Below the pieces are notes generated by a model, which was not told the origin of the DNA, did not search any database, and was given only the letters and a program-made list of their open reading frames with translations. A stretch of DNA of 64,000 nucleotides from Melieria omissa (Eukaryota; Arthropoda; Insecta; Diptera; Ulidiidae), in assembly GCA_963971225.1 (NCBI GenBank), contig OZ020267.1:122753891-122817890 (forward strand). Direction: 5' to 3'. Made by a program: the position numbers and the translations under genes. Of this stretch, positions 6,061 to 63,690 are shown one piece after another. Numbering within the stretch: the first letter of the stretch is position 1; each line of letters starts with the position of its first letter.

Positions 6061-7374
6061 CAGTGACGCACACAGGGCGCGTCCAGGGTGCCCTCCCCCC
6101 AAACGCAAACATTGCTGGTACAATTATTATTATTGATGGGGATGATGCACTGCGACCTCTACATCTATTGTGCCCCCTTCTTGGACTTCACAGACTGTCA
6201 GTGGGCCCGGTATCCAGGAAGAATTTCAGTATGCTTCCTACACCTCTGGATACCCAGTCCGTACCTGGTATAAGATGGTCCCCCAGGTGTTTCTTTCTTT
6301 TATGCATGAGTACAGGGCACTCTCCTAGTATAAGTAATGCAGTCTCGTTTTCCTGCAAGCAGAACCTGCAATACCCGTTTTCACGGATTCCTAGTTTGGC
6401 CAGATGATAATTCAGTCTGCAGTGCCCTGTTAGCATTCCCGTGATAATCCTTAGATTATTCTTTGATAGGGTCATGCAATCCTCGAATCTTTTCCTATTG
6501 TAGGACCCGATAACCATCTTGGAATGCTCTAGACCTGGTAGATTTTCTCAGTATTGAGTTCTTCTCGTTATCTCGTCCTTTCTCGTTAGGATTGAAGAAG
6601 CTCCTTTTCCCAAACCACAAAAGGGTTCAGGGGCGACAAAAGGTGTGGAAGCTCCCCTCCTTGCCAGTTCGTCGGTCCGTTCGTTTCCTTCAATGCCAGC
6701 GTGGCCCGGAACCCAAAGTACCCAGACCTGGTTGTAACGGCAAAGTTCGTTTAGCTTCTCAAGGCACTCCAAAACCAGTTTCGAGGACATCTGGTAGAAT
6801 ATAAAAGCCTTGATTGCCGCTTCGCTGTCGGAGAGGACAGCAATCTTTCGGTTCCGGTATCTTCTCGCCATATTGAAATAAGAACACCTTTCAATGGCGT
6901 ATATTTCCGCCTGGAAGATAGTGGTGCGTTTTCCCGTAGGTTCCGAGTATCTTATCCTCGGCCCGTATACGCGTATCCCGGTACCCTCCTCCGTTAAGGA
7001 GCCATCTGTGTACCAGGATATCATATGCTGGTCTATCAGATACGTTTTCGATATATCTACCCAGTTCCTTTTGTTGCTAAGTTCAGTTTTAAATCTTTTG
7101 ACAAAAGTGAACTTTAGTGAGATTGTGTCCCTCGGTATTGCAATGTCAGGATACTAATTCGTAAGAGTATCAATCCTCTTACGGGTCAGGAAGCCCTCAT
7201 TCCCGATATTTATGTCAGTCATCCGTAGAAGAGCCCTCTTCGCCTGGGTCTGTATGTGTAAGTGAAGAGATGTTATTGCTGGTACAAAATACGGTTTCAA
7301 ATGGTATTCGGTTCAAAAGTTGTACGCAAACCCCTGTCCCCCGCCGCCAAAATGAAATCCTGTGTGCGCCACTG
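6061..7374. mobile_element. hAT-like MITE split by a LINE insertion
   Basis: The outer ends are CAGTGACGCACACAGG at 6061 and, reverse complemented, CAGTGGCGCACACAGG ending at 7374. They match the MITEs at 155 and 29282. Between them lies a LINE fragment at 6123-7274. The 12 bases ATTGCTGGTACA occur at 6111-6122 and again at 7275-7286, marking the LINE target duplication. Removing the insertion leaves a MITE of about 150 bp. The 8-base outer flanks GATCGCTG and GGTAGATG agree at five positions, so the MITE insertion is older than the LINE. Confidence 0.75.
6123..7274 (-). pseudogene. 5'-truncated I-type LINE with RNase H domain
   Basis: One reading frame runs on the minus strand from about 7272 to 6188. 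It covers the end of the reverse transcriptase region, then an RNase H domain (TDGS near 7005, an FQAEIYAIE segment, a SDSEAA segment and VPGHAGIEGNERTDELARRG), then a C-terminal tail with a CRFCLQE cysteine cluster. Two in-frame stops break it: a TAG near 7155 and a TGA near 6548 where tryptophan would be expected. There is no frameshift. The 3' end carries a short TAA-repeat tail at about 6121-6134 (plus-strand ATTATTATTATT), typical of I-clade elements. A 12-bp target duplication flanks it. It is dead, but insertion was fairly recent. Confidence 0.85.
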
Positions 7375-9486: not shown

Positions 9487-9795
9487 CTTTCTTTAGCATA
9501 TTCGAGGCGTGAGGATTGCGGCTCTTTGTGCTAAGCGACGAACAATTCCAGCGATGCCACTGAAACTTTTTGATAAAGAGCGATAATTGAAGTTGCGTTA
9601 GCGCCCCCGCTAGCTAATCCTCCGCGAACAGTCCTTACGGTACTTACCTGAACTTGACATTCGCGGATGGCCATGTCGAGCCCCTCCAATGCGGCCGCTG
9701 TGACATCACTCGCCTTGTAGCAGAGCTCGAGTTGATCCTTTGTCAGTCCGGGCACGGAGCGGCACGTTGCGCGGCCATCGGGTAAGCAATGGAAC
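9487..9795 (-). CDS. Wnt10: Wnt10 ligand, two internal 5' coding exons (partial gene)
   Basis: Two exons are visible. The first, 9795 down to 9648, follows a CTATTGCAG acceptor and ends at a CAG/GTAAGT donor. It encodes cysteine-bearing Wnt N-terminal sequence including CRSVPGLTKDQLELCYKASD and MAIRECQVQ. The second, 9565 down to 9487, starts in phase 0 after an 82-bp intron and encodes FQWHRWNCSSLSTKSRNPHA, then LKK, ending at a GTGAGT donor with one base of the next codon. RWNCSSL is the Wnt hallmark. The RECQ-FQWHRWNCSSLSTKSRNPHAS context matches fly Wnt10 as I remember it. The product is a secreted lipid-modified ligand for Frizzled receptors. The next exon, expected to open near YRES, was not found to the left, so the gene leaves the window. 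The acceptor requires an upstream exon ending in two bases of a codon; a candidate lies at 29928-30157. Confidence 0.92.
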
Positions 9796-10158
9796 CTGCA
9801 ATAGAGGACAGCACTCTCAGAAGAATTCACCAAGTCCGATCTTGAATTAAACAAGTAATTCGTTCAATGCTAAAAGGTCAAACAATTTTTGCCCCATTAA
9901 AACTTACTTCGGCCCCGTTCAATTCGCGCGATCTCAATGGGAAAACATTGCAGTTTACGGAAACCTTGATTTTGAATAGAAACTCAAGTTGATAACAAAC
10001 ACAGCGCGCACTTGGAGCATGCGGCAGGCCGTATTAACTATACAACATAGTATGTACTTACAGGCTGATAAGCCGCCGCTGACAATGAATTTCTACAAAG
10101 TGTGTTACGCGCGCGTAGTGTTGCTGCTCAGTGTGATCATGGAGTGATTGACGGCAAG

Positions 10159-10874
10159 ATGGCTACAAAGTTACTTACGAAAATTTTGTGGGCAATATTT
10201 CTGCTGCACGTAAGTATCCGGCCATGTGCTGTGACTGTCGCGCCAAGTTCCACTGACCAAACGCTTTGTACTCGCAGTGCGGCAGCAGTCTGGGCGGCGC
10301 TCAGTACCAGAACGAGGACGAAACCGTCATTCTGCAGTACTTCAACTACGTTGACATCATAACACGCATCAAACTGGACAACATGCTGACGATGTCGCGC
10401 AACTTCGTCATACAGCTGCTGGAGTCCATACCGCATGAGGATCGCGGTAACTCGGCGGACATGCTGCAGCAGTTCATAGACGACGCGGAGCGCGTGGTCA
10501 GGGGCGGCTCCGAGGCGCAGAAGGAGGCAGTGCTGTATCAGCTGCAGGAGCTGATTGGCACCATCAAAGCGGAGCTGGTGAAGCAGGAGCAGGAGGACTT
10601 TATCATAAGGCGTGGTCTGATGGGCACTTTCGAGCTGCTGGCACGCCTCTCGATCGAGGATAGGAAATTTCATGAGAAGTTCGTCAAAGCGACGCAGCTG
10701 CTGCGCGACAAAGTCACAGCGGAGGGCGAAGAGCGCTACTACATTCTGTTCAGTCTTGTAAATGCCATAGAGAGTGAACAGGACATTGTCCAGCGCGAAG
10801 CACTGACGGCGCGCTACAAAGAACTAAAGGACCGGATACTCAGCGAAATCAACCAAAATCGCCGTAGGGGATAA
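10159..10874 (+). CDS. Small secreted helical protein A (unrecognised family)
   Basis: Exon 1 is 10159-10209 and exon 2 is 10278-10874, joined by a 68-bp intron (GTAAGT to CGCAG) that keeps phase 0 and falls inside the signal peptide. The spliced product is 215 residues. It begins MATKLLTKILWAIFLLH followed by CGSSLGGAQ, a typical signal peptide with likely cleavage near residues 22-26. The mature part has no cysteine, many charged residues and amphipathic helices. No domain is recognised. A variant polyadenylation signal ATTAAA lies at 10950-10955. The neighbour at 10963-11610 is convergent and the same length. Shared pattern: MLTMSRNFVIQLL here against ILKTSKDFVLRVL there. A role as an extracellular or reproductive-tract protein would be a guess. 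If the Wnt10 first exon at 29928 is right, this gene is nested in a Wnt10 intron on the opposite strand. Confidence 0.85.
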
Positions 10875-10962
10875 GAAAGGGACCCGTTGAAAGTACGCCA
10901 ATGTTTTAACCAATTTTTACACAAAACTCATTCAAATCATTTATGTATTATTAAAAGGATTT

Positions 10963-11610
10963 TCACTGCATATACAAGTCGACGAATCTGATGGGAGTTT
11001 TATTAACAACAATTTCAGTGATTTCCGCCAGTATGTCCAGTTTTTGCAGAGCGTCCCTGGCAGTGGGCACATCATCGAACAGGTTGTTGAAGTGTTGGTG
11101 CCGGAGCGCATCGTCGATGGTATGGCGGTTGAACTGTGTTCGCATGCTTTCAGCGGTTTTGTCCAGCCATGCGGCAATCGAGTCTGCGTGCACTTTGTAT
11201 TCGCGCAAGCACTCAGCGGACAAGTGTGTTCGCAATTCCTTCATGCCAAGTCCCTTCAGAAAGGCCAGCTTTCTCGAAATACGCTCACTCGTTCCTGCGG
11301 CGTCGGCGGCGGCAGTGGCCTCCACGTCCAGCACTCGATTGAGCTCCTCTAGAAAGCGCTTGAGCGAGCTGCGGTCGCGCATAGTAATGTTGACATCGTG
11401 CGCCAGCACCCGCAGCACGAAATCCTTGGACGTTTTTAGTATGTGCTCCAAGATGAAGTTCATCTGCTCAGGCGCGTAGCTCTCCAGCTCGCTGACAGCT
11501 GCGGGCTCCGCAGTAGGCGTGGCAGCGCTTGTCTGCAACTGCATGCGATCGATGCTCACTGTCAGTATCCATAAGACGGCGGGCAGCTTTAGTATTGCTT
11601 TTGTGCACAT
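10963..11610 (-). CDS. Small secreted helical protein B, probable paralogue of A
   Basis: A single-exon frame of 215 residues. The start ATG has a good fly context (CCAAA before it). The N-terminus, MCTKAILKLPAVLWILTVS, is a signal peptide. The mature region opens with an Ala/Thr/Pro-rich stretch, then predicted helices with one cysteine (AECLREY). The segment LKTSKDFVLRVL aligns with LTMSRNFVIQLL of the convergent gene, and equal length adds support for duplication. Unlike gene A there is no intron in the signal peptide. Stop codons of the pair are separated by 88 bp, so the 3' untranslated regions probably overlap in antisense. I do not recognise the family. It reads in the same direction as Wnt10. 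Confidence 0.8.
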   Translation of the reverse strand: MCTKAILKLPAVLWILTVSIDRMQLQTSAATPTAEPAAVSELESYAPEQMNFILEHILKTSKDFVLRVLAHDVNITMRDRSSLKRFLEELNRVLDVEATAAADAAGTSERISRKLAFLKGLGMKELRTHLSAECLREYKVHADSIAAWLDKTAESMRTQFNRHTIDDALRHQHFNNLFDDVPTARDALQKLDILAEITEIVVNKTPIRFVDLYMQ

Positions 11611-12660
11611 TTTGGATCGAGGCTTTTTTGATTCGATTTAGAATAACACTGAGGCGCATTTTGCTATTTACAAACATTCAAGAAAATTGCTTAGACCTGC
11701 GCAAACAGTGAAGACCTGCTAAATAAAACGCTTCACTGGGTTTCAGTGTCGGATGCCGCATTTGGGTGAATTCAGTGAGATGGAAAGTGGGTTTTGCGAG
11801 ATTTTACTGTACCTTAAATGCCTTATCAGTGTTTACTTGTGTATGAAAGAATTTGCGTTTTTATAATTTATTATGTCATTTTTAAAAATGCCTTTTGAAG
11901 CCAGCGCGACGTCTGATTAATTCAAATTACAAATTAATGACAGCGGCAGTTTTCAAACATACATTTGCAAAAATTGAGACACTTTATTTTATGTTTTTGA
12001 ACATATAAAATGTTTCTGATTATGCATATTTGTCATATTATATTGAACATATAAACATTTCAATTAGATAAGTAAAAATTGTTTTCTCTATCGAAATCAA
12101 CTGAACAATTTAAACATTTTTATAAAATATATAGCAACAATAAAACGAAAGAGTTAAATATTGAAATCAATGTCTTATAACATAAAATAAACGCAAATCT
12201 TATGGGGAAAATTGTTATTTCTTTGAGTGTGTGTGCATGACCACTTAGCATTATTAGACTGTTCGAATAGTACATATCAGTCCACAGGTCACCAAAACAT
12301 TAACTTTAAACATGGGACTCAAAGCTGAGCTTGCGATGTGTCTACCTATGGCCGTGCAAAACGCTCTACATACTGTTTGGAATTTCATTCAAAAATAATC
12401 ATATCAGCAGTTTTATATACCTACTATAGTTTGTTATGCATGGACGCCGATTCGAATTCTACGCTGTCTTATCGCCTTAACCCTTAACTGCAAGAGAGCA
12501 CAAATTTCATTTGAGCGATTTGAAACAGTAAGAAATATCACTAAAGTTTTATAAAAGTTTGAAATTGCGACTAAATGTTGGTTAATTTTTGTGATAGTCA
12601 TTTAGAGTTTTCGCAAGTAATTTTTATTTGGAGATGTCAAGTGCGAGGTACTTTTGTGAT
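11611..12660. other. AT-rich DNA, no gene seen
   Basis: The promoter of secreted gene B should lie in the first few hundred bases; no clear TATA box is seen. The remainder is AT-rich with no recognised coding or repeat ends. Confidence 0.4.
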
Positions 12661-12664
12661 TTAA

Positions 12665-13390
12665 GGGGGCTTTCCCGTTTTTCGGTTTCAAAAAAATCGT
12701 TTTTGTTTTTTACAGAAATCGATTTATAAATACCATAACAATATGAAGCCAAAGTTTCATAATGAAATATGCAATAGTTTTGAAGTTATAGCCAAAAATG
12801 TTTCGGCGCGCACAGCCTCGCGTACGCTTTAAAAAAACTTTAATCGCGTTTTCCTCGAAACCATGTTTTTGTGACGTTTTTTACACTTTTTTTCGGATCT
12901 AATGAACCGATTTGGATAAAACTGAATTTCACGTGTTCACAAATGAATTCTCTATCGCACATCATAGGATTTTTTCAATATTGTGAAATTTCGATTTTTA
13001 ACAACACTTTTAGTACCAAAATTTTGCAAAAAAAATCGATTTTTTTTCAAATTTGCGCCAAATTTCACCAAGCTGAAATTTTTCAAAAATCCTCCGATGT
13101 GCGATAACTAAAACTATGTAATTAATGAAAATGATGGTCAATTTGATTTCAGATAAACCGTACCCGAGAAAAGTGTAAAAAACTGGGAGTATGTTTTCCA
13201 AACAAGGCAACATAAGTACTTGGCAAGCCGGCGGCCATTTTGTTTTTTTTCCAAAAAAAAAATTTTTTTCAACTCACTATTGTAACAACAAACAAAATAA
13301 AAAAGAATTACAACATTTTATCAAACTGTCTTTCCAAAATTAATTCTTGAAAAACACCTAATTTTTCGACGAAAAAACGGGAAAGCCCCC
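12665..13390. mobile_element. TTAA-flanked non-autonomous DNA transposon, GGGGG-ended family
   Basis: The tetranucleotide TTAA lies directly outside both ends (12661-12664 and 13391-13394). The inverted ends share GGGGGCTTTCCCGTTTTT. There is no coding frame. Internal sequence around 12830-12870, ACTTTAATCGCGTTTTCC, resembles 46730-46745, ACTTTAAACGCGTTTTCC, inside the second TTAAGGGGG element at 46035-47274. The TTAA target is that of piggyBac-type elements, though piggyBac ends usually start with CCC. Confidence 0.7.
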
Positions 13391-13568
13391 TTAAAAGAGC
13401 TCGTTATTAAAAAATTGATTATTAGAAAATTTTTATTTAAATCAAATCAATTTTCTTGTTAATTTTTCATGTCAAAATTGATACAATTTGAATTTTTCTG
13501 AAGCAAATATGCAGAAAGATTTTCAAGATTTTAAAATACAAAAAGACTGCTGCAACTAAGACTACATA

Positions 13569-15207
13569 CAGCTGCGGTCAAAATAATAGTAGTACGCATA
13601 CAACGAAAAGAAAATTAAGAAAAATTAATCTGCTTTTTTTACAAATATTTATTTTATATTTTTTTTAACAAGTTATATGTGCTAACAATGCAATCATAAA
13701 AGAAAACTTAAGAATTAAACTCAGTTTGGTTTGATTTAAATTAAATGCGTCAAAAGCTCCAAAATATGGACGGTCAAAAAAATAGTAGTTCGCTTTACTT
13801 TCATAAAAATTAAGCAACAATTGTGTTTCATTTTAAAAGATTTTGTGGTTAAATAGTAATAACGTAATGTTTCTTCAAATTAGTATTTAGTTGCGTGACT
13901 GTTGTTTGGCTATTACTGCAGCACAGAGCCGATGCATTGAAATAACCAAATTTTCATATCTTTCTCTAGGGGCGTGGTCTACTGCTTCTCAAAGTTGATT
14001 ATTATTTAATAGATTATTGTGAGCAACTGCTCTCTTCACGTCACACCACAAATTTTTAATTATATTGAAGTCTGGTGATTGTGCGAGCCATTCCATAACC
14101 CTAATCCTGCTTTTGCGAAGCTCCTTTCATGCGACCTTTCTTGTATGCTTTCGGTTATAATCCTGTTGGAAGATCCAAAGCATTGGCGTTTTTTCACGGA
14201 CATACGGTGGCACGATTTCCCGCAAGATTCGTACACATACACATCGATCCATCGTTTTCTTGATCAAATAAATAGCGCCACCTCCATAAAACGTAAGACA
14301 TGCTCAATAAATAAATGCATGTCTTACGTTTTATGGAGGTGGCGCTATTTATTTGGCATACGGTTGCACGATTTCCTGCAAGATTCGTACACATACACAT
14401 CGATCCATCGTTTTCTTGATCAAATAAATAGCGCCACCTCCATAAAACGTAAGACATGCATTTATTTATTGAGCATGTCTTACGTTTTATGGAGGTGGCG
14501 CTATTTATTTGATCAAGAAAACGATGGATCGATGTGTATGTGTACGAATCTTGCGGGAAATCGTGCCACCGTATGTCCGTGAAAAAACGCCAATGCTTTG
14601 GATCTTCCAACAGGATTATAACCGAAAGCATACAAGAAAGGTCGCATGAAAGGAGCTTCGCAAAAGCAGGATTAGGGTTATGGAATGGCTCGCACAATCA
14701 CCAGACTTCAATATAATTAAAAATTTGTAGTGTGACGTGAAGAGAGCAGTTGCTCACAATAATCTATTAAATAATAATCAACTTTGAGAAGCAGTAGACC
14801 ACGCCCTTAGAGAAAGATATGAAAATTTGGTTATTTCAATGCATCGGCTCTGTGCTGCAGTAATAGCCAAACAACAGTCACGCAACTAAATACTAATTTG
14901 AAGAAACATTACGTTATTACTATTTAACCACAAAATCTTTTAAAATGAAACACAATTGTTGCTTAATTTTTATGAAAGTAAAGCGAACTACTATTTTTTT
15001 GACCGTCCATATTTTGGAGCTTTTGACGCATTTAATTTAAATCAAACCAAACTGAGTTTAATTCTTAAGTTTTCTTTTATGATTGCATTGTTAACACATA
15101 TAACTTGTTAAAAAAATACAAAATAAATACTTGTAAAGAAAAGCAGATTATTTTTTCTTCATTTTCTTTTCGTTGTACGCGTACTACTATTATTTTGACC
15201 GCAACTG
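13569..15207. mobile_element. Tc1-like palindrome: two transposase 3' halves in inverted fusion
   Basis: TA dinucleotides flank the ends (13567-13568 and 15208-15209). The ends read CAGCTGCGGTCAAAATAATA on the left and CAGTTGCGGTCAAAATAATA, reverse complemented, on the right. Nearly the whole 1.64 kb is one inverted repeat centred near 14388, so both strands encode the same decayed piece of a Tc1-type transposase: a WIFQQDYNRKHT segment, then SPDFNIIKNL. Stops interrupt it. A smaller hairpin unit (GCGCCACCTCCATAAAACGT and its complement) recurs within the centre. Autonomous function is lost, but the ends are intact and could be recognised in trans. Confidence 0.85.
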
Positions 15208-15333
15208 TACATCTAATGACTTCTGTCGAAGATGCGGCTCCTAGGAGGAGGAAGAGACTGGTCTCCACCGGTTGTGTCAGTGTCCAGAAGAAGACATATG
15301 TTAAGTTTCTCGGCTGAGTTTATGTATCATAAA

Positions 15334-16742
15334 CAAGGTGGCACAAAAGTTCTCACCCAGTGGTTTTTTCTAATTTGTTTTCGAATGAATAAGTAGGAAG
15401 TACAGTCTGTCCAGTAGAAGCGTGACCGTCGTAACTTGGAAACTATTTGTCCGATTCGTCTCAAACAAACTGCATTTTATGCGTTTATAATATTTATTGT
15501 ACGCAATATTTTTAATAACAGGTATAGTCACCGCCATTCGCTATTATGGCATCAAACCTGCGACCCATACTTTACGCTAAGTTCTGAGCAAGTTTCCGAG
15601 GCAATCGACTCCAGATCAGCAGAATTTGTCTCGATAACTGTTTTGTTGCTCATATAGTTTTTCCTCTGAGTTTCTGCTTTACTATTGCCCACCCATTTTC
15701 TATCGGGTTGGCATCAGGCGATTGTGAGGGCCAATCTAACACTTCCACCTCATTTTGCTGTTTTCACTCAGCACACATTCGGCTGCGATGTTTGTGGTCG
15801 TTGTCTTCTTGTATAATCCAAGAGAGTCCTCTTCTCCTGAACATCTCCGCAGCTGGTGGTAATAAAGCTTTTTCATAAATTTTGTTCATCAAAACCGCGT
15901 TCAAGTTGGTCGTTATAACGAAAAGTCGCCCAAATCCTTTTTCTGAGAAGCAGCCCCAAACATGGATCTTTACTGGGTCTTTAGCAGTTCGTTGGAACAA
16001 TCGGTTGATGGCGGCACACCGAGATCGATTTATGCTACTATTTGCCCAAAATTGGGATTCATCCGTAAATATTACATTATTCCAATTCCGATCTGAATTG
16101 GCATAAGCCCAGGTAAGCCGTTTTGAACGTGTGATGATGAGAGCAACAGTTTTTTCAATGAGCTCCGGTATTTAACGTCGGTAGTTCTTAAACGTCCTCG
16201 AATCGTCTCTTTTGATATTTGAACACCAGTTTTCTCTAAAACTGCTTTAACTTTACGCAACGATAAGCCCGGCTTCGTCGCAAACAAATCAATGATCTTC
16301 TTGTCCTGTTTTGGGGAGGTATTTTTTTCAAGGCCCCGCCCAGCCAAATCGTCGACATTTTTTGCTTCAATAAACCGATTCCTTCTCTTCGTTATGAACG
16401 ACGTCGACTTCTTCATATATTTCGCTGCAGCTAAACGTGACATTTACGGCCCTCTAGGGTGTAGACAAAGGAATACGGCTTCAAGTCGCTTCTCTCATGC
16501 GGAACTCAATTTGTTAAAACACCGTGCACTTTGTAATTGTTTCACGAGACTGACCAGTTTTGCAATGCGTATTACAAAAATGATGAGGCTACTTAGGTGC
16601 ATTCAAGTTTTTTTGATATCGGTACTCTAAGTGACAATTTGGTCGATCACGCTTCTACTGGACAGACTGTATATATTCATTTATTCGTTCATAAACAAAT
16701 TAAAGCCAAAGAACACTGGGTGATAACTTTTGCACTACCCTG
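15334..16742. mobile_element. MITE interrupted by a Tc1-like element
   Basis: The left part at 15334-15402 begins AAGGTGGCACAAAAGTTCTC then ACCCAGTG. The right part at 16670-16742, reverse complemented, begins CAGGGTAGTGCAAAAGTTAT then CACCCAGTG. Both continue into matching TTGTTT and GAATAAAT sequence. Joined, they form a TIR-ended element of about 140 bp. The Tc1-like element at 15403-16669 sits in its middle. Confidence 0.7.
15403..16669 (-). mobile_element. Tc1-like transposon with broken transposase
   Basis: TA flanks both ends (15401-15402, 16670-16671). The inverted ends share CAGTCTGTCCAGTAGAAGCG. The minus-strand transposase begins MSRLAAAKYMKKS near 16443, with a helix-turn-helix region and the GRGLEKNTSPKQDKKI linker. 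It then runs on through FTDESQFW (first catalytic Asp), IIQEDNDHKH (second Asp) and WPSQSPDANPIENGW (the Glu that completes the triad) near 15720-15750. Frame is lost near 16080, between the paired-like domain and the DDE domain, and again after about 15764. All three catalytic positions remain recognisable, so the copy is recently dead. It is inserted in the MITE at 15334-16742. Confidence 0.88.
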
Positions 16743-50467: not shown

Positions 50468-51339
50468 GGGTTTTCCAACAAGAGGTGTTATTTTGAATCA
50501 CCCGTCATTTCGGTAGCTGTCACTTTTGAAGCTTTTATTCTTTGACATTTGACAAGTAGAAACTACGCCATCGAAACTACGTATCGAAAAATGGAACGAT
50601 ACTTGGTTCAACAATGCATTGAAATAATTAAAATTCACTACAAAAATGGTGAAAATCTTGCAGTCGCAGTTCGCAATACAGAAATTGGTGGAAAAATTCG
50701 AGCTGTTGGGACAAGTTAGTGATGTGACCGCAATACAGAAATTGGTGGAAAAATTCGAGCTGTTGGGACAAGTTAGTGATGTGAAGAATAAAAACCGTGC
50801 ACGTCACTCAAGAACAACTGAGAATATTGCTGCTGTAGCCCAAAGTGTTGAAGAAAACCCAGGTTTGTCGATTCCTCGTCGTTCTTTGGAATTAATGATT
50901 TTTTTATGGTCGGAGTTGGATGGTATTGATCTGGACAACGTTTACTTTCAACAAGACGGCGCTACGTTCCACACAACCAACGAAACCATTGCTCTTTTAC
51001 GGGAAAAGTTTCCGGACCGGACACCTTGCGACTTCTTCCTTTGGGGCCACGCGAAAGATAAGGTGTACGCCAACAGCCCAGCGTCGATTCTAGACCTCAA
51101 AGATAGAATTCGTGAGACTATCGAGGACATAGGGCAGCCACTTTGCGATTTGGTTATGGAAAATTTCATGAAAAGGATATGGTCCTGTAACCGTGGTCGT
51201 GGTGGCCATTTGGCTGCTGTTGTTTTTCATTATTAACGGCATACCTTCCTCTTTATTATGAAATAAACATTCGATCATTTATCTCAAAAACTGGCATCTT
51301 TCTTTGAATACCAAAATAACACCTCTTGTTGGAAACCCC
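50468..51339 (+). mobile_element. mariner-like transposon, internally deleted, both ends intact
   Basis: TA flanks both ends. Terminal repeats start GGGTTTTCCAACAAGAGGTG on the left and GGGGTTTCCAACAAGAGGTG, reverse complemented, on the right. The transposase starts at ATG 50591 (MERYLVQQCIEIIKIHYKNG). The frame carries a 57-bp tandem duplication at 50672-50785 that repeats 19 residues. It then contains FQQDGATFHTTNETIALLR (the second catalytic Asp region) and a deletion that joins KFPD directly to RTPCDFFLWGHAKDKVY. Part of the catalytic core is therefore missing. It is more complete at its ends than the relative at 37037-37789. Confidence 0.85.
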
Positions 51340-61001: not shown

Positions 61002-61981
61002 CTACAGACACGTGTTCACCTCTCGTCGCTCCAGGCACTTATCACATGTCACATCGCAGCACCACTTGAAGACGCACTTGCAGTTGACCCACTCGGAGAC
61101 GATGCGGTGTCGGTAGCCCCGGCTGCAGCACAGCAGATCGCAGCCGTCCACGCCGGCCGAGGTTGCGTTGCATTCGCGGCCCTGCGTTCCGATCGAGCCC
61201 GTCTTCATGTTGGGCGCACAGAAGTCGGCCGAGTCGTCCGTATAGACGAGATCGTACTTGGTGGGCTGCTTGATCGTTTCGCTCTCGGGCATGAAGCTGT
61301 TGCCGTCGTTGCGCAGCACCACCTTGTAGGCGCCGTCGAACTTGTCGCGCAGCCGCGTGGCCACCTCCCGGAAGGGCGGCATTTTCAGCCAGCACGTCTT
61401 CACCGTGCACGAGCCGGACAGCCCATGGCACTTGCACTCCAGCCGCATTGAGTCACGTATGGCCTGCAAAAACAGCCGTTTCGATTATCGAGAAAACCTA
61501 AAACTAAGCGCTCGCAGACGCGGTCGCCTTTTGCTCACCAGTCGCCCAGCGTTGTTGTTGTGCAGCTTGACCAACGTGCGTAGATCGCGCCTGCGCCTGT
61601 ACTTGGAATCGAGGAAGGCACGCGAGTGGCGGAAGCCAAAGTTGACGTTGTCGCTGCAGCCGCCCCACTCCCATTCGCCCTCCGGAAAGTGAATGTTGCG
61701 CAGCGGCGTGCGCTTGCGGCCGCCCAGCCGGCCGCGGTTGCCGCGATTGTGCTTGGGCCGCTTCGGTCTGGCGGTGGTGTTGCGCTCGAAGGCCGCTTGC
61801 TGCCGCTCCAGCGCTGCTTCTGCCGTCACGGCGTTCACCATCTGTGGCTGGCCGCCGTTGCGACGCGAGTGGCTCTTGTCACAGGAACACTCGATCAGGC
61901 TGCCCATGGTGCAGGCCTTGGTCACCGAGTACGTGACGCCCGCCGAGGTGATGGCGTTCACAAAGCCCGTCTCGCGTGTAT
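61002..61981 (-). CDS. Wnt6: Wnt6 ligand, last two coding exons (partial gene)
   Basis: The penultimate exon, 61981 to 61539, follows a CTTCCGCAG acceptor. It encodes RETGFVNAITSAGVTYSVTK, ACTMGSLIECSCDKSHSR, a basic spacer rich in Arg, Lys, Asn and Gly, then WEWGGCSDNVNFG and LVKLHNNNAGRL, ending at a GTGAGC donor. A 75-bp intron leads to the last exon, 61463 to 61002 (153 residues and TAG). This encodes CKCHGLSGSCTVKTCW (the serine that carries the lipid lies in HGLSGSC), PPFREVATRLRDKF, the FCAPN segment, RECNATSAGVDGCDLLCC and KCVFKWCC, ending in VNTCL. PPFREV, NDGNSF, GCDLLCC and the final CL fit Wnt6 better than wg, which has a long insert here. The exon joins in phase 0. The N-terminal exons, including the RWNC motif, were not found before the right edge. 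Confidence 0.95.
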
Positions 61982-63690
61982 CTGCGGAAGAGTTACGAGA
62001 AAAGGGGGAAAAGTGATTGAGAGGAGTGACCATAAAAATAGTTGCGAATCTGTGCAGCGAGCGTTTGAGTCGTTTGTGGCGAGTGTCAGTTGGATGTCAG
62101 CACACACAACTAAATTGACACTCGGCTGAAAAGTGACAGTTTACAGCTCTGGCTGACCGCACAACTGACACCTAGAATTGCTTGTTACAAACAAAGCGAC
62201 GATAATGACAGCAATAAAATATTAACTTGCAATTGTTATTCATTTATGCAGGTGATTAGCACCGCAACCGCTCACGTATCGACAGCGGTGGCGGTGGCGG
62301 CGGCGTTCGCGCATGCAAAACCACTTTGTTCGCGCGTACACACTTTTGTCAAACGTCACGATCGATTTGTTCTCTGCCTGTTGCGGTGTGACATGCCGCA
62401 CAATGTAGTAATCGGCGGCTACGCGGACCTCAACTCTGACCGCGCGCTGTGGGAAAGCAAATATTGAATTTTCTCCAACTATGTATTCGCATCAACGAAA
62501 AAAAAAAAATCGATTCGAAAAAATTACGTTCCAGTGCACCCAAACCACATTTATCTAAGTTCGAGCACCTATTATTGTTCAACTAGTTGAAGCGGCATCG
62601 GGCACACCTTACACCTTCCGCCAACGATCAGCTGTAACATAAAATGTCAGCTCGACTGACGGAGGTTAAAACCCATGACGCCGTGTTTGCGCGAATGTCA
62701 ACAGCGGTAGCGACGACACGGCTCGCACGACTGTTGAACAAGTGACACACTGCCGCTGACTTGTCACTTCCGACAGCGGGCCGTGTCTGTGCCTGTTGGC
62801 GTTTGGCAACGGGGGCAAAACACTAGTCTGTATTATTTTCGACGCTCGGTACACACGTCATACAGTGTATTAGCTAAATATTTGCGCCCATAAAACGAGC
62901 AAGTTAAGTAAAAGCACAATATTTGGTTTTGTGTGAATAAGCCTCGATGAACACGCTAAACGGGCCTTGATAACGGGCTCGCGGTGACAGCTCGAAAGTC
63001 TGTAAACGCGAAAAAATGTAAAAAAACCGTATGGGTTTTTTTCAGAGTTTAAACAAAGATTCTGTCAGTTGCCGAACATAGAGGATCAAGAAAGTTAATT
63101 GTTCTATGGGAGATATTTGGCTAGGTCTTCTTCTTACTTGTGTAACGGTACTTATAAACGCTTACAACTCCTTTAAGTTCAATTGTTGTTGTCATTGCTA
63201 CGAACAAGCCACGTGCTGAGTAAGTTACTAAAGTGTTTTATTTGCTGCGGCTGAAGAAACCTCAAACTAGTGTCCGGCCAAATAATCGACATGGGTCTCA
63301 GCTGGTATTGGCCAATAACTCGAATATATAAACAGACCACGGAAGCATTTAGGGGAAAATCTTTCCTAAAGGCGAAATCTTTACAGGGTGAGAGAGTGTA
63401 AGGATCCAGGAAGAAATCGAGCTCAAAGGCAAGTGTCCACTATGGATTTTGTTCGGTAGAGTGTATGTAGAGCGTAGAGATTAAACCTGTTGTGTTTTCA
63501 CTATAGCGCGACTCTACCACACTAGCGATCTACGTAGAAATGGTGTAGAGAAATTTTGAGTAGAGCTCTACTATGCACTGTACCAGCTGTGGCCACTCTA
63601 GACACATTTTTCTCTATGGTAGATCAAGATCGTTTGACATTTCACTTCATTTCGGAGTCATTCTGTCGTGCGTGCGTGCGTATACAACTT
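61982..63690. other. Wnt6 intron, running off to the right
   Basis: No Wnt N-terminal exon was found on the minus strand here. A GC-richer section (61982-62900) directly precedes the exon. AT-rich sequence follows, with GTAGAG-like repeats at 63460-63610. Confidence 0.55.

What the first reader, a model, noticed from the sequence alone, without database searches (positions are those of the whole stretch)
10159..11610. Unrecognised pair of tail-to-tail secreted helical paralogues
Both predicted proteins have exactly 215 residues, a signal peptide, almost no cysteine and a shared SRNFVIQLL / SKDFVLRVL segment. One has an intron inside the signal peptide, the other none, so intron gain or loss followed duplication. 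I know no named family for them.
Basis: partly seen in the sequence, partly recalled or inferred. Interest (0 to 1): 0.75.

Follow-up and report, generated by a model that had tools for sequence, protein, structure and literature searches.

The report
Divergent pair of secreted fly genes
Two neighbouring fly genes that face each other tail to tail encode distant sister proteins, probably secreted and mostly helical; one is conserved among flies but has no known function, the other has changed so much that its kinship shows only with a family profile.

Summary
Gene A (10159-10874, +, one 68-bp GT-AG intron) and gene B (10963-11610, -, no intron) each encode 215 residues with a hydrophobic leader and almost no cysteine; their stops are 88 bp apart, tail to tail. 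A is not an orphan: profile search found 20 relatives, the 10 named ones all from muscid, tsetse and blow flies and all uncharacterised or hypothetical. B found none in its one search. A against B is not significant by BLASTP. But a profile of the 20 relatives, A left out, ranks A first and B second among 4,748 open frames over 234 kb (E 7e-72 and 0.0012; next 0.49); 1 of 20,000 shuffles reached B's score. So they are very probably old paralogues, A conserved and B strongly diverged. Relatives' proteins imply that A's intron is old, so loss in B (or an RNA-derived copy) is likelier than gain. A is predicted as an all-helical bundle (pLDDT 87) without a confident match in PDB; B's model is unusable. 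No Pfam cut-off was reached. Function is unknown; an extracellular binding or carrier role is my inference. Modest interest.

The parts
10159..10209 (+). Gene A, exon 1: start codon and hydrophobic part of the leader (17 codons)
   Evidence: donor CAC|GTAAGT
10210..10277 (+). Gene A intron, 68 bp, phase 0, GT-AG
   Evidence: (junction table); same place implied in fly relatives by translated ORFs
10278..10874 (+). Gene A, exon 2: rest of leader and mature helical protein, with stop
10875..10962 (.). 88 bp between the two stop codons; 3' ends probably overlap (ATTAAA about 75 bases after A's stop)
10963..11610 (-). Gene B: single-frame 215-aa divergent paralogue, two N-glycosylation sequons (NIT 74, NKT 203)
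9648..9795 (-). Neighbour: Wnt exon, called Wnt10 from recall of the sequence (FHCLPDG...IRECQVQ); its upstream coding exon was not found, so whether A and B lie inside a Wnt10 intron or upstream of the gene is open
   Evidence: further Wnt exons at C1:122746790-122750912

Best explanation
A and B are two very unequal members of one uncharacterised family of fly proteins with an N-terminal leader and an all-helical body. A is the conserved member: it keeps the family's core helix pair (around KE..L..LQ.LI..I...L.KQE.ED.I.RRGL.G.FELLARLSIE.R) and the old leader intron. B arose by inverted duplication, lost the intron (or was copied from spliced RNA) and then diverged strongly, keeping 16 of 55 highly conserved positions, 9 of them in helix 4 (GM-EL---LS-E). 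Shown: gene anatomy, A's relatives, B's profile match, no third copy found by the searches made. Inferred: secretion, the history of the intron, and function. For function I commit to an extracellular helical bundle that works by binding a partner or small ligand, with B a changed version under different selection; this step rests on fold type and conservation alone (about 0.3).
For: 20 relatives of A at 46-54% identity. A profile without A scores B at 16.5 bits, E 2.1e-7 as a single test; mature part 14.0 bits, E 1.2e-6; two segments in the right order; reversed mature B E 0.03. Shuffles of mature B reaching its score with that profile: 1 of 20,000 plain, 0 of 20,000 that keep the hydrophobic pattern; with A in the profile 1 and 1 of 20,000. 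A second statistic: 0 of 1,000 in each of three shuffle types, with and without A in the profile. Real-sequence control: B is second of 4,748 frames over 234 kb, E 0.0012, next 0.49. With SKDFVLRVL cut out the score still exceeds 1,000 of 1,000 shuffles. A: helical model, pLDDT 87.3, pTM 0.79. Intron: P0005 departs from P0012 at ...RFHF(Q), the letters that a TTY CAY TTY CAG acceptor read through would give; P0009 and P0018 have a Q at that place where annotated blow-fly proteins have E.
Against: BLASTP finds nothing significant between B and A, P0001 or P0002. hhalign gives probability 4.5%, P 0.009. A alone against B is reached by 2, 5 and 1 of 1,000 shuffles. In one search one of 1,500 shuffles of each of two kinds reached B's HMM score, and 14 of 73 rotations of B did (rotations keep the matching segments; 0 of 73 by the other score). 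The ML tree puts B on a branch of length 10, that is saturated. B's lone model has pLDDT 40, so no fold comparison exists. B's identity at conserved columns (16 of 55) is only a little above that at variable ones (25 of 120 aligned). No transcript or protein evidence for either.
Confidence: 0.8

Rival explanations
1. A and B are unrelated helical secreted genes that happen to lie side by side; the shared pattern is convergence of amphipathic helices.
For: No BLASTP match, weak hhalign, saturated branch.
Against: Pattern-keeping shuffles almost never reproduce the score (0 of 1,000; 0 and 1 of 20,000); B is second only to A among 4,748 real frames; two colinear segments match.
Confidence: 0.12
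2. B is a processed (RNA-derived) copy of A that landed next to its parent, which would explain the missing intron in one step.
For: B lacks the intron; the intron appears older than the window fly's split from muscid and blow flies.
Against: Landing tail to tail 88 bp from the parent would be a coincidence; intron loss after an inverted DNA duplication needs no such luck. B is no closer to A than to the other flies (61.0 against A alone, 64.4 against the rest), and a clade of A with B is if anything disfavoured (AU p 0.044 on a saturated branch).
Confidence: 0.15
3. The duplication is older than the leader intron: A's line gained the intron, B never had it, and calyptrate flies lost B or changed it beyond recognition.
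For: B is about equally far from A and from the other flies.
Against: B's distance is saturated, so its age cannot be read; no B relative was found in the one search made.
Confidence: 0.2
4. B is not a working gene but a decayed or chance frame.
For: Weak codon-use score; no relative in the database searched.
Against: Stop-free over 215 codons with ATG and a hydrophobic leader (4 of 3,000 simulations reach that length); profile match. A decayed copy would rarely keep the whole frame.
Confidence: 0.06

Closest known systems
Uncharacterised proteins of calyptrate flies, e.g. Musca domestica A0A1I8M4A8, Stomoxys calcitrans A0A1I8P0U5, Glossina pallidipes A0A1A9Z5Z5, Lucilia cuprina FF38_08027, L. 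sericata LOC119613023, Calliphora vicina LOC135951868, Haematobia irritans LOC142227231
   Same: A is a member: 46-54% identity to the 20 relatives, same conserved core, a leader in the annotated full-length ones, and an implied leader intron
   Different: B matches only as a profile outlier; none of the relatives bears a functional name
Pfam PF11865 (mTOR_dom)
   Same: Best Pfam match of A, residues 44-114
   Different: 18.2 bits against a cut-off of 27.6, and seen in 1 of 21 family members: read as chance helix similarity
Solved helical bundles (e.g. staphylococcal complement inhibitor SCIN, LemA protein 2etd, a designed four-helix bundle 1yo7)

Membership tests
Uncharacterised fly family of gene A (no name) | Significant sequence similarity, gene A | tested here: met
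   E 4e-45 and 2e-36 with A alone, 18 more by profile at 2e-57 or better; A scores 239 bits against a profile built without it
Uncharacterised fly family of gene A (no name) | Significant sequence similarity, gene B | tested here: met
   E 0.0012 over 4,748 frames with A left out of the profile; pairwise BLASTP not significant
Uncharacterised fly family of gene A (no name) | Phase-0 intron in the leader, gene A | tested here: met
   GT-AG, phase 0 (junction table). In relatives it is inferred from amino acids only
Uncharacterised fly family of gene A (no name) | Phase-0 intron in the leader, gene B | tested here: not met
   B is one open frame from ATG to stop; intron content is not taken as needed for homology
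Uncharacterised fly family of gene A (no name) | All-helical bundle | tested here: inconclusive
   A: helical, pLDDT 87; B: model unusable, pLDDT 40
Any Pfam-A family | Score over the curated cut-off | tested here: not met
   A: best 18.2 of 27.6 bits; B (given without its first Met): nothing listed at E up to 1
Seminal fluid / accessory gland proteins | Male reproductive expression | not testable with these tools
   No expression data
Paralogous pair by fold | Superposable models of A and B | tested here: inconclusive
   B's model has no residue at pLDDT 70 or more

The most novel reading that the evidence does not exclude
A founds an undescribed family of secreted helical-bundle proteins of higher flies, in this fly beside Wnt10, that binds a dedicated extracellular partner through its unusually conserved third and fourth helices; B is a strongly diverged antagonist or sex-specific version of the same ligand.
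Probability: 0.1. Interest if true: 0.65.

Novelty: new member of a known kind. Interest (0 to 1): 0.4.

Why it matters
It turns a pair of open frames into a testable case of unequal evolution after duplication: one copy conserved from this fly to house flies, blow flies and tsetse, the other diverged to the edge of detection. It also flags a conserved fly protein family without a Pfam model or known function, several of whose bearers are livestock pests or disease carriers (general knowledge).

Full report
What is there. Gene A runs on the plus strand from 10159 to 10874 with one 68-bp intron (10210-10277). Of the 12 donor and acceptor combinations tabulated, only 10209|10278 joins a GT to an AG; it gives the 215-aa frame. 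Gene B is one open frame on the minus strand, 10963-11610, also 215 aa. The stop codons are 88 bp apart, tail to tail. Both have a hydrophobic leader; with a nominal cut after residue 22 the pI values are about 5.1 and 5.8. B has two N-glycosylation sequons, A none.

Surroundings. A Wnt exon lies on the minus strand at 9648-9795. I call it Wnt10 from recall. Wnt exons continue beyond the window's left edge at C1:122746790-122750912, and a second Wnt gene, Wnt6 by recall, has exons at window 61008-62006. The coding exon upstream of 9795 was not found, so A and B may be nested in a Wnt10 intron or lie upstream of that gene. The genome is 490 Mb in 164 contigs. It carries no name here; all ten named relatives of A are flies.

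A's family. The first search with A gave 2 relatives, E 4e-45 and 2e-36. A search with the alignment of A and these two gave 20 in all, the same two included, the weakest at 2e-57. Ten bear names: Musca autumnalis, M. domestica, Stomoxys, Haematobia, two Glossina, two Lucilia, Cochliomyia and Calliphora. The other ten have no name (8 'lgn', 2 'ena'). No protein named as Drosophila or tephritid appeared, but the search needs shared five-letter words, so absence is weak evidence. B as query: 734 candidates, none at E 10. Identity to A in the 21-row alignment is 46-54%. The strongest block is helices 3 and 4: 30 of 63 columns there are at least 95% conserved, 13 of them polar, against 20 of 101 in the other four helices.

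Are A and B paralogues? Directly, no test is convincing: BLASTP fails, hhalign gives P 0.009 with probability 4.5%, and A alone against B is reached by 2, 5 and 1 of 1,000 shuffles of three kinds. With the family profile the case is good. Built from the 20 relatives with A left out, it gives B 16.5 bits (single-test E 2.1e-7) in two colinear segments, mature B 14.0 bits, reversed mature B -0.4. Shuffles show that HMMER's E is optimistic: 1 of 20,000 plain and 0 of 20,000 pattern-keeping shuffles reach mature B (1 and 1 with A in the profile), and 1 of 1,500 of each kind did in an earlier, smaller run. I take the chance level as between 5e-5 and 7e-4 for this statistic. In a scan of 4,748 open frames of at least 30 codons over 234 kb, A is first (7.1e-72), B second (0.0012) and the next is 0.49; with A in the profile B has 0.0067 there. 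Results against: the tree gives B a saturated branch (length 10) and slightly disfavours A+B as a clade (AU p 0.044), and B keeps only 16 of 55 conserved and 25 of 120 aligned variable positions.

Intron history. P0005 (unnamed source) is almost the same as annotated house-fly P0012 through its body, but its first ten residues differ and end in RFHF before a shared Q; such letters are what a splice acceptor TTY CAY TTY CAG would give if read through, and the Q of P0012 is what an exon ending in CAG would give. P0009 and P0018 show a Q at the matching place where the annotated blow-fly proteins have E. This is read from amino acids, not DNA, for three of the ten unnamed proteins. It implies a phase-0 intron at the same place in muscids and blow flies, so A's intron is old and B most likely lost it, or was made from spliced RNA; a duplication older than the intron cannot be excluded because B's place in the tree is unreadable.

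How it works. Secretion follows from the leaders (inferred). A soluble helical bundle with a long, almost invariant helix pair suggests a binding surface or a buried core under strong constraint; I take an extracellular binding or carrier role as most likely. B's divergence suggests a different partner or relaxed constraint. No expression, binding or genetic evidence was available.

Verdict. Observation confirmed, paralogy probable, family real but uncharacterised, function open. Interest is moderate: unequal duplicate pairs of secreted genes are common in flies (general knowledge, not tested here).

Noticed in passing
10085-10147 (+): A 20-codon frame upstream of A's start (read by eye) encodes a hydrophobic leader-like peptide whose start resembles the MN.. 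starts of blow-fly and house-fly relatives; it could be an alternative first exon or an upstream ORF.
   Followed up: no
12640-12990: Part of a dispersed repeat: 40 other match rows in the genome (the tool scored 40 of 276 candidates; two rows are one place), 39 of them spanning about 320 bases or more at 97-99% identity, so a recently active element.
   Followed up: partly
13567-15209: Inverted repeat with 789-nt arms, 97% complementary, 65 nt apart, with inner 120-nt repeats; looks like a foldback element next to the dispersed repeat.
   Followed up: no
16072-16443 (-): Fragment of a Tc1/Tc3-type transposase (PF01498).
   Followed up: no
6548-7024 (-): RNase H piece, probably of a non-LTR retroelement (PF00075).
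   Followed up: no
50646-51236 (+): Transposase-like frame with an internal duplication (QKLVEKFELLGQVSDV twice), mariner-like by recall; only a DUF4817 match under its cut-off.
   Followed up: no
G000:C1:122746790-122909950: Wnt exons on one strand over about 163 kb, read as three genes (Wnt10, Wnt6, wg by recall of sequence), with further Wnt exons on the other strand at 123.07 Mb.
   Followed up: partly
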